5,225 nt of DNA from Candidatus Rokuibacteriota bacterium. Its GTDB lineage: Bacteria > Methylomirabilota > Methylomirabilia > Rokubacteriales > JACPHL01. Below the pieces are notes generated by a model. It searched no databases, was not told where the DNA came from, and saw nothing but the letters and a program-made list of their open reading frames with translations. Shown here piece after piece: positions 1-3,272 of this stretch; positions within the stretch are counted from its first letter, which is position 1; every line of letters starts with the position of its first letter. The translations under genes and the position numbers were made by a program. The stretch is taken from positions 1 through 5,225 of the forward strand of contig JACPHL010000230.1 in assembly GCA_016188625.1 (NCBI GenBank). Direction: 5' to 3'.

Positions 1-138
1 ATCGAACAGCGAGCCGGGGAACCCGACGTGCCCGAAGCGGATCTCGATCGGCTTCTGCTGCGCCACGACCGGGGCGGGGTCGGCGGAACCCGCGACGAGC
101 CCTGCGGTCACGATGAGGGCCAGTGCCATCTTCCTCAT
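1..138 (-). CDS. TRAP transporter substrate-binding protein (DctP-like), N-terminal fragment, cut by left edge
   Basis: Only the first 46 residues are present; the frame is open to the window edge. The protein starts MRKMALALIVTAGLVAG, a basic n-region plus hydrophobic core typical of a Sec signal peptide. A likely cleavage region lies around Val-Val-Ala-Gln-Gln (residues 24-28). The mature start, KPIEIRFGHVGFPGSLFD, has the IxxRFGHV opening strand usual for periplasmic DctP-type TRAP binding proteins. These capture organic acids and deliver them to a DctQM membrane pair, which would lie off the window if present. The ATG at 138 is chosen because AAGGAGG (minus strand, 153-147) sits 8 nt upstream; an in-frame ATG at 129 has no such site. 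The gene follows the aminotransferase by 44 nt on the same strand, so co-transcription is likely. With so little sequence, another periplasmic binding-protein family remains possible. Confidence 0.6.
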   Translation of the reverse strand, partial: MRKMALALIVTAGLVAGSADPAPVVAQQKPIEIRFGHVGFPGSLFD

Positions 139-182: not shown

Positions 183-1544
183 TCACGCCTTCCCGGGGAC
201 GACGGCCTGGACCGCCTCCCGGACCACCTCGACGAGCCGGTCCACCTGCGCCTCGGTGATCACCAGGGGCGGGGCGAACAGGAGGACATCCCCGCGGATC
301 CGGGTCACGACCCCCCGCTTCTCCATCTCCCGCTTCACCCTCTCCCCCACCTTCTCTCCGGGCGGGAAGGGGGCCTTCGTCGCCCGGTCCGCCGTCAACT
401 CGACCCCGGCCAGGAGACCCCGGCCGCCCCGGACGTCCCCCACGTGGGCCAGGTCCAGGAGCCCCAGGAACCCCTCGTAGAGGCGCGCCCCGAGCCTGGC
501 CGAGCGCTCCCAGAGCCGCTCCCGCTCCATGATCTCGAGGTTCGCCAGCGCGACCGCGCAGCAGGTCGGGTTGGCGGAGTAGGTGTAGGCGTGCATCCAG
601 CGGTCCTCGTACCGGACCGAGTCCATCGCGGCCTTGATCTCGGCCGAGACGATGATCCCCCCGAGCGGCAGGTAGCCCGAGGTCACCGCCTTGGCGAAGG
701 TCATGATGTCGGGCTCCACCCCCCAGTGGGTGAGGGCGAACCACTGCCCGGTCCGGCAGAAGCCGGTGATGACCTCGTCGGCGATGAAGAGGACCTGGTG
801 GCGGGTGCAGATCTCGCGGACCCGCGGGAAGTAGTCGTCGGGCGGGACGATGACGCCGCCCCCGCCGATGATCGGCTCGGCGATGAAGGCCGCCACCGTC
901 TCCGGCCCCTCGGCGAGGATCTTCTCCTCCAGCTCCCGCGCCGCGGCCTGCCCCACGCCCTCCCCGGGCCGGGCGCCCTGGAAGCGGTAGGGGTACGGGG
1001 CCTGGATGTGGACGAAGCCCGGGACCCGCGGCTCGAACATCTTCCAGTAGAGCGGCATCCCGGTGGCGCTCATCGCCTGCCCCGTCACGCCGTGGTAGGC
1101 GTTCTCCCGGGCGATGATCTTGCCCTTCTCCGGCTTCCCCTTGGCCTTCCAGTAAAAGCGCGCGGTCTTGAAGGCCGACTCGTTGGACTCCGCGCCCCCG
1201 CAGGTGAAGAAGACCGCGGTGAGGTTCTTGTACGCCAGCTCCACGAGCCGCGTCGCCAGGCGGATCGCCGGGACGTTGGAGGAGCCCACGTACCCCGAGA
1301 AGTAGGCCAGGGTCTTCATCTGCTCGGAGGCGGCCCGGGCCAGCTCCTCGCGCCCGTGCCCGACGGCGACGTTCCAGAGGCCGGCCAGGCCGTCGATGTA
1401 CTCCTTCCCCTGGATGTCCTTGACGACCGCCCCCTTCCCCTCGACGTAGATCAGCGGCTCGGCGTGGTCCAGGGGGTGGTGGAGGGAGTGGATCAGGTGC
1501 GCCTGGTCGTCCTTGACCAGCTCCGCGGCGTTCAGCGTGGTCAT
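183..1544 (-). CDS. class III PLP-dependent aminotransferase (omega-amino acid/amine:pyruvate type)
   Basis: The complete protein has 453 residues, normal for fold-type I class III aminotransferases. It would move an amino group from an omega-amino acid or amine to a keto acid, usually pyruvate, using PLP in the cytoplasm. Visible landmarks are Trp57 in GLWNVAVGHG, the phosphate-binding GGAES (116-120), Tyr150-His151-Gly152 stacking on the cofactor, Glu223 in IAEP, Asp256 in IADEVITGFCRTG (pairs with the pyridine nitrogen) and the Schiff-base Lys285 in TFAKAVTSG. Arg415, before RGDVLLFAPPL, sits where amine:pyruvate transaminases place the arginine that switches for carboxylate substrates. 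It resembles SpuC-like or beta-alanine/taurine:pyruvate enzymes; the exact donor cannot be read from the sequence. The ATG has an excellent AAAGGAGG (1557-1550) 5 nt upstream and overlaps the stop of the upstream cyclotransferase gene as ATGA, implying coupled translation. Confidence 0.93.
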   Translation of the reverse strand: MTTLNAAELVKDDQAHLIHSLHHPLDHAEPLIYVEGKGAVVKDIQGKEYIDGLAGLWNVAVGHGREELARAASEQMKTLAYFSGYVGSSNVPAIRLATRLVELAYKNLTAVFFTCGGAESNESAFKTARFYWKAKGKPEKGKIIARENAYHGVTGQAMSATGMPLYWKMFEPRVPGFVHIQAPYPYRFQGARPGEGVGQAAARELEEKILAEGPETVAAFIAEPIIGGGGVIVPPDDYFPRVREICTRHQVLFIADEVITGFCRTGQWFALTHWGVEPDIMTFAKAVTSGYLPLGGIIVSAEIKAAMDSVRYEDRWMHAYTYSANPTCCAVALANLEIMERERLWERSARLGARLYEGFLGLLDLAHVGDVRGGRGLLAGVELTADRATKAPFPPGEKVGERVKREMEKRGVVTRIRGDVLLFAPPLVITEAQVDRLVEVVREAVQAVVPGKA

Positions 1545-1972
1545 GCCTGCCTCCTTTGGGCGCGAGGGTTCGGGGAGGTGCGTCGGTCGGCCAGATGGCG
1601 GCGCCAGTCGCCGGAGGGGATCGGGACGGCCTGCGCGAGCGGGCCGGCGTAGAGGTAGGCCCAGGCCGCGATGACGCGGCCATCGGCGAGGGTCACCGGG
1701 ACGCGGCGGCGGACGTAGAGGCTCCCCGCCTCGTCGGCGGGATCGTACCCCTCCTCGTCGTCGAGCCGGCGAAGGAGCCCGGGGTCGCGCAGGCGGTAGG
1801 CCTCGCCGTGGACCCGGCCATGAGGCGTCGTCACCGCGCCCGGATAGTCGCCGAGGTCGTAGAGGCGGCCGGGGATCTGCCCGGGACCCAGGGGGACCGC
1901 CGAGGCCAGGAGGGGGTGGAGGGGGAGCCCGGGGAGGAGGGAGCCGTAGACGAAGAGGACGTCGGGTTCCAT
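1541..1972 (-). CDS. gamma-glutamylcyclotransferase-like (AIG2/GGCT-fold) protein
   Basis: The protein has 143 residues from the chosen ATG. It opens MEPDVLFVYGSLLPG, carrying the YGSL substrate-binding loop of the gamma-glutamylcyclotransferase fold. It also has the LDDEEGYD segment (70-77), where Glu74 is the likely general acid/base, then LYVRRRVPV and AWAYLYAG (103-110), the usual closing strands. The family releases 5-oxoproline from gamma-glutamyl peptides or gamma-glutamyl amines; which one applies here is unclear. The frame stays open up to 2047, but those 25 extra codons overlap the peroxiredoxin gene and encode Ser/Arg-rich sequence unlike the family, so the ATG at 1972 is preferred. 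That ATG is 7 nt after the peroxiredoxin TAG; only a weak GGCGG ribosome site precedes it, so translation may rely on coupling. The stop overlaps the aminotransferase start (ATGA). The C-terminus (about 124-143) is Arg-rich and may be disordered. Confidence 0.85.
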   Translation of the reverse strand: MEPDVLFVYGSLLPGLPLHPLLASAVPLGPGQIPGRLYDLGDYPGAVTTPHGRVHGEAYRLRDPGLLRRLDDEEGYDPADEAGSLYVRRRVPVTLADGRVIAAWAYLYAGPLAQAVPIPSGDWRRHLADRRTSPNPRAQRRQA

Positions 1973-1979
1973 GGCGCGG

Positions 1980-2552
1980 CTATCGGGCCGCCTTCGCGAG
2001 ACGGTCGAGGGCGGTGAGGACCGGCTGGATGTCCAGGGCGAGGCCATCCACCTCCACGAAGCGGATGATCCGGTCCCGGTCGATGATGAAGGTGGCCCGC
2101 CGCTCGAGCCCCCAGGCCTCGTCGTAGACGCCGTAGAGCCGCCCCACCTTCCCCTTCGGGCCGAGGTCCGAGAGGAGGCGGAAGGGGAGCCCGAGGTCGC
2201 GGGACCACGCCAGGTTGGTCTTGGGGGGATCCACGCTGATCCCGACTACCTCCGCCCCCAGGGCATCGAACCTCGCCTTCTCATCCCGGAACCGGGAGAA
2301 CTCCAGGACTCAGCCGGGGGTGAAGGCCTTGACGTAGAAGGCCAGAACCACGTGCGGGCGACGGGCGAGGAGTTCGGAGAGGCGGACGATCTTCCCGTCC
2401 TGATCGCGCAGGGCGAAGTCCGGGGCCCTGTCGCCCACGGCCAGGGGCTGATCAGGACCAGCGGCCGACGGCGGCGCCAGCAGGATCGCCGCGAGGGCGA
2501 CCGCCGGGAGCAGCGACGCCAGGGCGGGGAGGACCAGGCGCCTCCCCGTCAC
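1980..2552 (-). CDS. selenocysteine-containing peroxiredoxin (AhpC/TSA family), exported or membrane-anchored; read through in-frame TGA
   Basis: The product has 190 residues if the TGA at 2312-2310 is read as selenocysteine (residue 81). Before it lie GDRAPDFALRDQDGK (40-54) and the strand VVLAFYVKAFTPG (68-80); after it VLEFSRFRDEKARFDALGAEVVGISVD (82-108), LPFRLLSD (122-129), YGVYDE (140-145) and RRATFIIDRD (151-160). This is an uninterrupted AhpC/TSA peroxiredoxin. The TPGU (78-81) replaces the catalytic TPxC, with Arg152 as the expected active-site arginine. The protein has no cysteine, so it is a 1-Sec enzyme needing an external reductant; selenocysteine peroxiredoxins are known (PrxU of Eubacterium acidaminophilum). 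The start is a GTG overlapping the previous gene's TGA as GTGA, with GGGGTG 5 nt upstream. Residues 4-31 (RRLVLPALASLL... to PPSAA) form a signal peptide or anchor; RRLVL faintly resembles a Tat motif. A GTG at 2438 would give a cytosolic form but lacks a ribosome site. Confidence 0.85.
2284..2297 (-). promoter_or_regulatory. candidate bacterial SECIS hairpin of the peroxiredoxin mRNA
   Basis: Counting the U of UGA as 1, nucleotides 16-20 (UCCCG) pair with 25-29 (CGGGA), leaving an apical loop GUUC at 21-24; an inner G-C could close it further. On the DNA this is the perfect inverted repeat TCCCGG/CCGGGA. The geometry resembles the E. coli fdhF SECIS, whose loop GGUC lies at about 22-25 after the UGA, with a G and U that SelB recognises. 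More pairing is possible below the stem (UUCUC with GAGAA in an alternative fold). It lies inside the coding sequence, as bacterial SECIS elements do. Folding was done by eye. Confidence 0.65.
2310..2312 (-). other. UGA recoded as selenocysteine, peroxiredoxin residue 81
   Basis: The codon is TGA on the minus strand, directly after codons for Ala-Phe-Thr-Pro-Gly, where AhpC/TSA enzymes carry the peroxidatic cysteine. The same frame continues for 109 codons of recognisable peroxiredoxin before a TAG. A random nonsense mutation or sequencing error would be unlikely to hit exactly the catalytic codon, and even less likely to do so in the neighbouring gene too. Read-through needs SelB, tRNA-Sec, SelA and SelD, none of which is in this window. 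Confidence 0.85.
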
Positions 2553-3208
2553 GCCAGCACCCCGCCGCCGTCGGCGGCCCGGAGGACCTCGGCGACGAAG
2601 GCCGGCTCCGGGAGGGCCCCCTCGAAGGAGACCGTCTCGTTGATGACCACCTTCGGGACCGCCATGACGGCGTAGCGACGGGCCAGCTCCGGGAACTCGG
2701 TGGCCTCGATGGCATCCCCCCGGATGAGGTCCGAGGCGGCGGCCAGGTGATGCGCCAGGCGCACGGCCCGGGGGCAGTGGGGTCAGGTCGGCGTCGTGAA
2801 GACCTGGATGTGGACGGGGCGCGTGAGCCCGCCGAGCTGCTCCAGGGTCCGGGCCGAGAGCTGGGGCTGGCCCGAGGCGGCCAGGAGCATGGCGTCGATC
2901 AGGTTCGCGAACTCGTAGCCCCCCGGGAGGCCGAAGAAGCGGATCCCGTAGTCGCGGGCGCCCTCGACCACGACGGCGGGGATCTTGTCCACCCCGTAGG
3001 CCTCGGCCTTGTCCCGGTCGAGGATGGCGTTCCAGGTCTCCACGGTGACCTTGTCGGAGAGCGAGGCCAGCTCCTTCATCAGGTGCTCGGTGGCCACGGC
3101 GGCCTCGGTGCCGAGCTCCTGGGTGAAGACGATGAGCTTCACGGGACCGGCCAGCTTGGCCAGCTCCTGCTCGACCAGGCCCCGGTCCCGATCCGTGAGG
3201 ATCGCCAT
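2549..3208 (-). CDS. selenocysteine-containing two-domain thioredoxin-fold oxidoreductase (PDO/glutaredoxin-like); read through in-frame TGA
   Basis: The product has 219 residues if the TGA at 2785-2783 is selenocysteine (residue 142), close to archaeal/bacterial protein disulfide oxidoreductases (about 225 residues, tandem thioredoxin folds). The N-terminal domain has strand KLIVFTQ (24-30), helix EHLMKELASL, TVETWN and cis-Pro77 in KIPAVVV, but its CxxC position reads ELGTEA, so it is redox-dead. The C-terminal domain has HIQVFTTPT (133-141), the active site U-P-H-C (142-145), helix PRAVRLAHHLAAASD and cis-Pro185 in AVPKVVIN. Cys145 is the only cysteine, so Sec142/Cys145 is the sole redox pair. 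No signal peptide is seen; it is probably cytoplasmic. The ATG at 3208 has AGGAGG (3221-3216) 7 nt upstream and is the first gene after the promoter. The gene ends in TGA, overlapping the peroxiredoxin GTG. The likely role is thiol/selenol reduction or disulfide exchange, plausibly as reductant of that peroxiredoxin. The N-terminal domain of AhpF has a comparable fold. Confidence 0.85.
2755..2771 (-). promoter_or_regulatory. candidate bacterial SECIS hairpin of the oxidoreductase mRNA
   Basis: Counting the U of UGA as 1, nucleotides 15-20 (CCGGGC) pair with 26-31 (GCCUGG) through one G-U wobble, leaving the loop CGUGC at 21-25. A G within the first two loop positions followed by U, 20-23 nt after the UGA, matches the known bacterial SECIS layout and nearly superposes on the hairpin of the next gene. 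It lies within the coding sequence over residues 146-152. Paired by eye; in such GC-rich DNA a chance stem is possible. Confidence 0.65.
2783..2785 (-). other. UGA recoded as selenocysteine, oxidoreductase residue 142 (UxxC)
   Basis: The TGA follows codons for Val-Phe-Thr-Thr-Pro-Thr and precedes Pro-His-Cys-Pro, so it takes the place of the first, nucleophilic cysteine of a glutaredoxin-type CPHC. The same frame continues for 77 codons, including the cis-proline loop (AVPKVVIN), to the normal end. The same gene also uses TGA as its true stop (2551-2549), so the two TGAs must be told apart by local RNA structure. Confidence 0.86.
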
Positions 3209-3243: not shown

Positions 3244-3272
3244 ATTATACCCGACCGCTCCCCCCTTGTCTT
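3244..3272 (-). promoter_or_regulatory. sigma70-type promoter of the selenoprotein operon
   Basis: On the minus strand a perfect TATAAT (3249-3244) lies 17 nt downstream of AAGACA (3272-3267), which shares GACA with the consensus -35. Transcription would start near 3237, giving a leader of about 30 nt that holds the GGAGGAGGG ribosome site before the ATG at 3208. A perfect -10 box in DNA this GC-rich is unlikely by chance. No terminator is visible before the left edge, so all five minus-strand genes may share this promoter. Confidence 0.7.

What the first reader, a model, noticed from the sequence alone, without database searches (positions are those of the whole stretch)
1980..3208. Two adjacent selenoprotein genes: a Sec peroxiredoxin and a Sec PDO/glutaredoxin-like oxidoreductase in one operon
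Sequence shows two in-frame TGA codons, one per gene, each exactly at the catalytic cysteine position (TPG-TGA; TGA-PHC). Both proteins resume in frame with clear family sequence, and the genes overlap by GTGA. Selenocysteine peroxiredoxins and UxxC thioredoxin-fold proteins are known separately. A tandem pair in which both the peroxidase and its candidate reductant carry Sec, driven from one promoter, looks like a dedicated selenium-based peroxide-reducing system. The pairing of partners is inference.
Basis: partly seen in the sequence, partly recalled or inferred. Interest (0 to 1): 0.92.

Follow-up and report, generated by a model that had tools for sequence, protein, structure and literature searches.

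The report
Adjacent selenocysteine peroxiredoxin and disulfide-oxidoreductase genes
A bacterium of the uncultured Rokubacteria kind carries two neighbouring genes whose active-site amino acid is selenocysteine, one for an apparently exported peroxide-destroying enzyme and one for a thiol-reducing enzyme inside the cell; both genes look real and their pairing recurs in relatives, but that one protein recharges the other is not shown, and their predicted locations argue against direct contact.

Summary
Observation confirmed. On the minus strand, a TIGR02187 protein disulfide oxidoreductase (PDO; Sec142, UPHC) overlaps by GTGA an AhpE-like peroxiredoxin (Prx; Sec81). The genome has tRNA-Sec, selA, selB and a selD that itself holds an in-frame TGA. 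The TGA is kept at the PDO active site in 51 of 52 class relatives; many homologues from other phyla have TGC/TGT there. All 14 PDO-Prx pairs, in 10 genera, have TGA in both genes; this Prx subfamily was never seen away from the PDO. A bacterial-SECIS-like stem follows the PDO TGA in 51/59 Sec genes against 2/32 others.

Interpretation only partly supported. The Prx starts with a signal-peptide-like segment in all 13 orthologues with a readable N-terminus, has no resolving Cys, and usually lacks the Pro of PxxxTxxC. The PDO has no such segment, and Sec-PDOs have mostly lost the N-terminal CxxC. Peroxidase and candidate reductant are probably on opposite sides of the membrane. The Prx is a facultative insert (14/52) in a conserved PDO-[Prx]-GGACT-aminotransferase run.

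Both families are known selenoproteins; this tandem, the exported AhpE-like form and the one-site Sec-PDO were not found in the papers I could search. New variant of a known kind.

The parts
2549..3208 (-). Sec-PDO gene: TIGR02187 protein disulfide oxidoreductase, 219 aa, two Trx folds; C-terminal active site UPHC, N-terminal CxxC absent (TQELGTEAAVAT)
   Evidence: TIGR02187 252 bits over cut-off 185; PDB 2ywm/1a8l matches; alignments
2783..2785 (-). In-frame TGA read as Sec142 of the PDO
   Evidence: TGA in 51/52 class relatives, TGC/TGT in many homologues of other phyla
2755..2771 (-). bSECIS-like stem-loop (UGA+14..+30; loop with GU at +21/22) in the PDO coding sequence
   Evidence: >=5/6 pairs in 51/59 distinct Sec-PDO vs 2/32 non-Sec-PDO sequences, sliding controls lower; codon-resampled energy alone not significant
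1980..2552 (-). Sec-Prx gene: AhpE-like 1-Sec peroxiredoxin, 190 aa, GTG start overlapping the PDO stop (GTGA)
   Evidence: PF00578 122 bits; AF2 model pLDDT 89.5, M. tuberculosis AhpE Z 26.5, rmsd 1.4, 38% identity
2310..2312 (-). In-frame TGA read as Sec81, the peroxidatic position of the Prx
   Evidence: TGA in 14/14 adjacent orthologues; aligns with the Cys of AhpE
2280..2300 (-). bSECIS-like hairpin after the Prx TGA (TTCTCCCGGTTCCGGGATGAG)
   Evidence: hairpin at this place in orthologues; codon-resampling mean Z -1.16 over 14, 36% with p<=0.05, against about 0 in control windows; the window's own copy alone is not significant: modest support
2460..2552 (-). Signal-peptide-like N-terminal segment of the Prx (about residues 1-31)
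   Evidence: hydrophobic segment after basic residues in all 13 orthologues with a readable N-terminus; absent in the PDO. No signal-peptide predictor was available
3244..3272 (-). sigma-70-like promoter candidate upstream of the PDO (AAGACA-17-TATAAT)
   Evidence: 10/12 matches, expected about 0
1541..1972 (-). GGACT-type gamma-glutamylcyclotransferase gene, third in the run
   Evidence: PF06094 92 bits; downstream of the PDO in 47 of 52 loci
183..1544 (-). Class III aminotransferase gene, fourth in the run, overlapping the third by 4 bases
   Evidence: PF00202 332 bits; downstream in 50 of 52 loci

Best explanation
Two genuine selenoprotein genes at the head of a four-gene run. The PDO is a cytoplasmic thiol/disulfide reductase with all its chemistry in the C-terminal Sec site (U142-P-H-C145), the N-terminal CxxC being lost. 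The Prx is an exported AhpE-like 1-Sec peroxidase: peroxide oxidises Sec81, and because no resolving Cys exists, an outside thiol or selenol must regenerate it. With the Prx outside and the PDO inside, a link would most likely be indirect, through a membrane thiol conduit of the CcdA/DsbD kind (two homologues in this genome) and a periplasmic carrier. Shown: the gene pair, TGA codons, Sec machinery, family, modelled fold, linkage. Inferred: Sec insertion itself, export, peroxidase activity, electron route.
For: Sec machinery: tRNA-Sec 75.7 bits, selA-like frame beside it (recognised from its sequence, not scored against a family model), selB 381 bits, selD 396 bits with a TGA. TGA conserved, Cys in homologues. 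SECIS-like stem in Sec-PDO but not non-Sec-PDO genes. N-terminal CxxC kept in 28/32 non-Sec PDOs but 5/72 Sec-PDOs. Prx fold AhpE, Thr78 and Arg152 kept. Signal-like N-terminus in 13/13. DsbD_TM homologues at C197 and C121.
Against: No signal-peptide predictor, localisation or activity data. A downstream in-frame GTG could give a cytoplasmic Prx, though this would discard the conserved segment and the GTGA overlap. The Pro of PxxxTxxC is Val/Ile/Leu in most orthologues, so peroxidase activity is not certain. The conduit is not encoded nearby. The relatives are phylogenetically related, so the counts are not independent.
Confidence: 0.58

Rival explanations
1. One reading: a dedicated pair in one compartment, the Sec-PDO directly reducing the oxidised Sec-Prx.
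For: Invariable linkage and overlap; PDO recycles Bcp1/3/4 in S. solfataricus (PMC7465337); a selenoprotein Grx adapted to reduce a selenoprotein MsrA is known in Clostridium (title cited in PMC9312934); the site retained in the PDO is the one that matters most for thiol-transferase activity in S. solfataricus PDO.
Against: Signal-like N-terminus on the Prx, none on the PDO; most Sec-PDOs have no such Prx beside them.
Confidence: 0.25
2. Both are real selenoproteins but share only transcription and selenium-dependent translation; the Prx is a facultative passenger in a conserved PDO-GGACT-aminotransferase run.
For: Prx present in 14/52, needing about 10 changes on the PDO tree; decayed copy in G046; in other genomes the slot holds a small membrane selenoprotein candidate, alone or with a hydrolase-like frame.
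Against: The Prx subfamily is never found elsewhere in the class, unlikely for a mere passenger.
Confidence: 0.15
3. Pseudogenes, assembly errors or a reassigned TGA rather than Sec.
For: None found beyond the assembly being fragmented (344 contigs, 84% complete).
Against: TGA at the same columns across separate genomes, conserved frame after it, complete Sec machinery, and TGA used as the ordinary stop of the PDO itself.
Confidence: 0.02

Closest known systems
Sec-containing 'homolog of AhpF N-terminal domain' (TIGR02187 PDO_seleno_TRX; Carboxydothermus, Symbiobacterium)
   Same: Same family and same UxxC motif; Sec form listed in PMC1794560 and PMC13188914
   Different: Here the N-terminal CxxC is lost and the gene is followed by a probably exported Sec-Prx
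Sec peroxiredoxins of the TxxU type (PF00578)
   Same: Sec at the peroxidatic position, TxxU
   Different: Nearest to AhpE rather than PrxU/BCP (below their NCBIfam cut-offs); signal-like N-terminus; Pro of PxxxTxxC mostly replaced
M. tuberculosis AhpE (1-Cys Prx reduced through mycothiol/mycoredoxin-1)
   Same: Fold (Z 26.5, 38-39% identity), single peroxidatic residue, catalytic Arg
   Different: Sec instead of Cys, signal-like N-terminus, a PDO rather than a mycoredoxin beside it
Sulfolobus solfataricus TrxR-PDO-Bcp peroxide system
   Same: PDO and a Prx as a redox pair
   Different: Cys proteins there; here both Sec, PDO with one site, Prx probably exported, interaction unproven
Selenoprotein Grx reducing selenoprotein MsrA (Clostridium)
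   Same: Enzyme and reductant both carry Sec
   Different: Different enzymes; reported there, only inferred here
Prx/SelW and Prx-like/AhpD-like adjacent selenoprotein genes (marine metagenomes, PMC2398784)
   Same: Two neighbouring Sec genes of redox proteins
   Different: Different partner family

Membership tests
TIGR02187 protein disulfide oxidoreductase | Score over the curated cut-off along the whole model | tested here: met
   252 bits vs 185, model 2-208/209
TIGR02187 protein disulfide oxidoreductase | C-terminal redox motif of the CPYC kind | tested here: met
   UPHC; Sec/Cys142, Pro143 and Cys145 invariant in the alignment
Classical two-site PDO (PDI-like) | N-terminal CxxC also present | tested here: not met
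   TQELGTEAAVAT in the window; CxxC in 5/72 Sec-PDOs vs 28/32 non-Sec
Peroxiredoxin (AhpC/TSA) | Family domain and fold | tested here: met
   PF00578 122 bits; structure matches to Prxs
Peroxiredoxin (AhpC/TSA) | PxxxTxxC motif and catalytic Arg | tested here: inconclusive
   Thr78, U81 and Arg152 present; Pro is Val74 in the window, and Pro in only 2 of the 11 aligned orthologues
AhpE group | Best match among Prx groups by sequence and structure; no resolving Cys | tested here: met
   no other Cys in P0002
PrxU / BCP equivalogs | NCBIfam cut-offs | tested here: not met
   75 vs 270 and 73 vs 140 bits
Bacterial selenoprotein gene | In-frame TGA at a Cys column, SECIS just downstream, Sec machinery in the genome | tested here: met
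   SECIS support good for the PDO, modest for the Prx
Bacterial selenoprotein gene | Sec found in the protein | not testable with these tools
   needs mass spectrometry or 75Se labelling

The most novel reading that the evidence does not exclude
A selenium-based transmembrane peroxide defence: a one-site cytoplasmic Sec-PDO feeds electrons across the membrane to an exported Sec-Prx, in some relatives with a small membrane-anchored selenoprotein (LPRFGxxTU...SREEP) encoded between them as the relay, so that three successive carriers would use Sec.
Probability: 0.12. Interest if true: 0.85.

Novelty: new variant of a known kind. Interest (0 to 1): 0.5.

Why it matters
It adds a conserved pair of Sec redox enzymes in a selenoprotein-rich, uncultured lineage, and a clear case in which a two-site oxidoreductase became one-site where Sec replaced Cys. 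If the two proteins do exchange electrons across a membrane, it would be a defined test of why some bacteria use Sec in successive carriers.

Tried and rejected
Rfam scan of the window: nothing at E<=1. Codon-resampled folding energy did not by itself support a PDO SECIS (mean Z -0.61); the fixed-stem comparison did. A Prx of this subfamily was not found next to the PDO in the non-Rokubacterial loci with flanks of up to 4 kb. Haft & Tolstoy 2025 (PMC12013261) is not held, so its content was not checked. The G058 PDO has AGA (Arg) instead of TGA: left as a lone exception, error or decay. I considered a reassigned TGA and a chance or assembly origin and rejected them on the comparative evidence.

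Full report
What is there. The window is an entire 5,225-base contig (C39) of a 2.6-Mb, 84%-complete assembly. Named relatives of the PDO at about 60% identity are mostly Candidatus Rokubacteria, and the class relatives number 95 genomes; I take it as Methylomirabilota/Rokubacteriales, an inference from those names. On the minus strand, reading TGA as Sec gives a 219-aa PDO (3208-2549, Sec142) and a 190-aa Prx (2552-1980, Sec81), overlapping by GTGA. They are followed by a GGACT gene (1972-1541) and a class III aminotransferase (1544-183), so the run has four genes, not two. A sigma-70-like site stands just upstream of the PDO and no terminator-like site lies between.

Are the TGAs Sec codons? 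The genome carries tRNA-Sec, a selA-like frame next to it, selB and selD with its own in-frame TGA. In 52 class genomes analysed (the window's own included), the PDO column is TGA in 51 and AGA in one; in all 14 with the Prx next door, both columns are TGA. Many PDO homologues from other phyla have TGC or TGT at the column, while further Sec forms occur in Acidobacteria, Sulfobacillus and others. The frame after each TGA is conserved. A stem at UGA+14..30 with a GU-bearing loop forms in 51/59 distinct Sec-PDOs and 2/32 non-Sec ones; many Sec sequences are close relatives, so the Fisher p-value overstates independence. For the Prx the hairpin evidence is weaker.

What the proteins are. The PDO passes the TIGR02187 cut-off. 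NCBIfam already names this family PDO_seleno_TRX, and the Sec form is listed in PMC1794560 and PMC13188914. Its N-terminal CxxC is gone; CxxC survives in 5/72 Sec-PDOs but 28/32 non-Sec ones. In S. solfataricus PDO the C-terminal site is fundamental for thiol-transferase activity and both sites are needed for isomerase activity (PMC7465337), so the Sec form should be a reductase rather than an isomerase: inference. The Prx is AhpE-like by sequence and by model (pLDDT 89.5; Z 26.5, rmsd 1.4 over 153 residues). It has no other Cys, so it is a 1-Sec enzyme. Thr78 and Arg152 are kept, but the motif Pro is Val74, and Val, Ile or Leu in most orthologues.

Pairing. Prxs of this subfamily were found only next to the PDO. 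The Prx is nonetheless optional: on the PDO tree its presence needs about 10 changes, at least 7 forced by well-supported branches, and G046 holds a remnant with the Sec region deleted. Each Prx orthologue with a readable N-terminus begins with basic residues and a hydrophobic stretch; in several the start codon overlaps the PDO stop, which places the start before that stretch. The PDO lacks such a segment. Direct reduction of an exported Prx by a cytoplasmic PDO would need a carrier across the membrane; two DsbD_TM homologues exist elsewhere in the genome. That route is a hypothesis.

Neighbouring oddity. In ten class genomes a 48-56-aa frame with one hydrophobic segment, LPRFG(x2-3)U and SREEP lies just after the PDO. 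In G081 and G083 it lies between PDO and Prx, giving three Sec genes in a row. No NCBIfam model matches and no Pfam model reaches its cut-off. Its SREEP codons may double as a hairpin; I judged this by eye and did not test it.

Verdict. Real, conserved, and a step beyond listed examples of neighbouring selenoprotein genes (Prx/SelW, Prx-like/AhpD-like; PMC2398784, PMC13188914), but built from known selenoprotein families. I could not read all the literature (for example PMC12013261), so novelty is relative to the papers held. The dedicated peroxide-reducing pair remains an untested idea with one serious obstacle, localisation.

Noticed in passing
L179-L188 (e.g. G083:C149:13355-13495, G081:C126:2343-2486): Small one-helix selenoprotein candidate LPRFGxxTU...SREEP directly after the Sec-PDO in ten genomes; in G081 and G083 it sits between PDO and Prx, giving three Sec genes in a row. 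No Pfam/NCBIfam family above cut-off.
   Followed up: partly
L189-L195: Weaker relatives of that small protein elsewhere in seven genomes, each with one TGA.
   Followed up: no
L151 (G046:C230): Decayed Prx between PDO and GGACT: signal-like start and C-terminal piece remain, the Sec region is deleted.
   Followed up: yes
L161 (G058:C122): PDO whose Sec codon reads AGA (Arg), otherwise intact.
   Followed up: partly
G000:C130:6294-6743 and C131:3823-4269: Two further Prx-like genes with an in-frame TGA in the same genome.
   Followed up: no
window 183-1972: GGACT plus class III aminotransferase conserved downstream of the PDO in most relatives; why they travel with a PDO is unknown.
   Followed up: partly
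L009:1615-2330 (C273): Two overlapping frames between selC and selA look like one gene broken by a frameshift.
   Followed up: no
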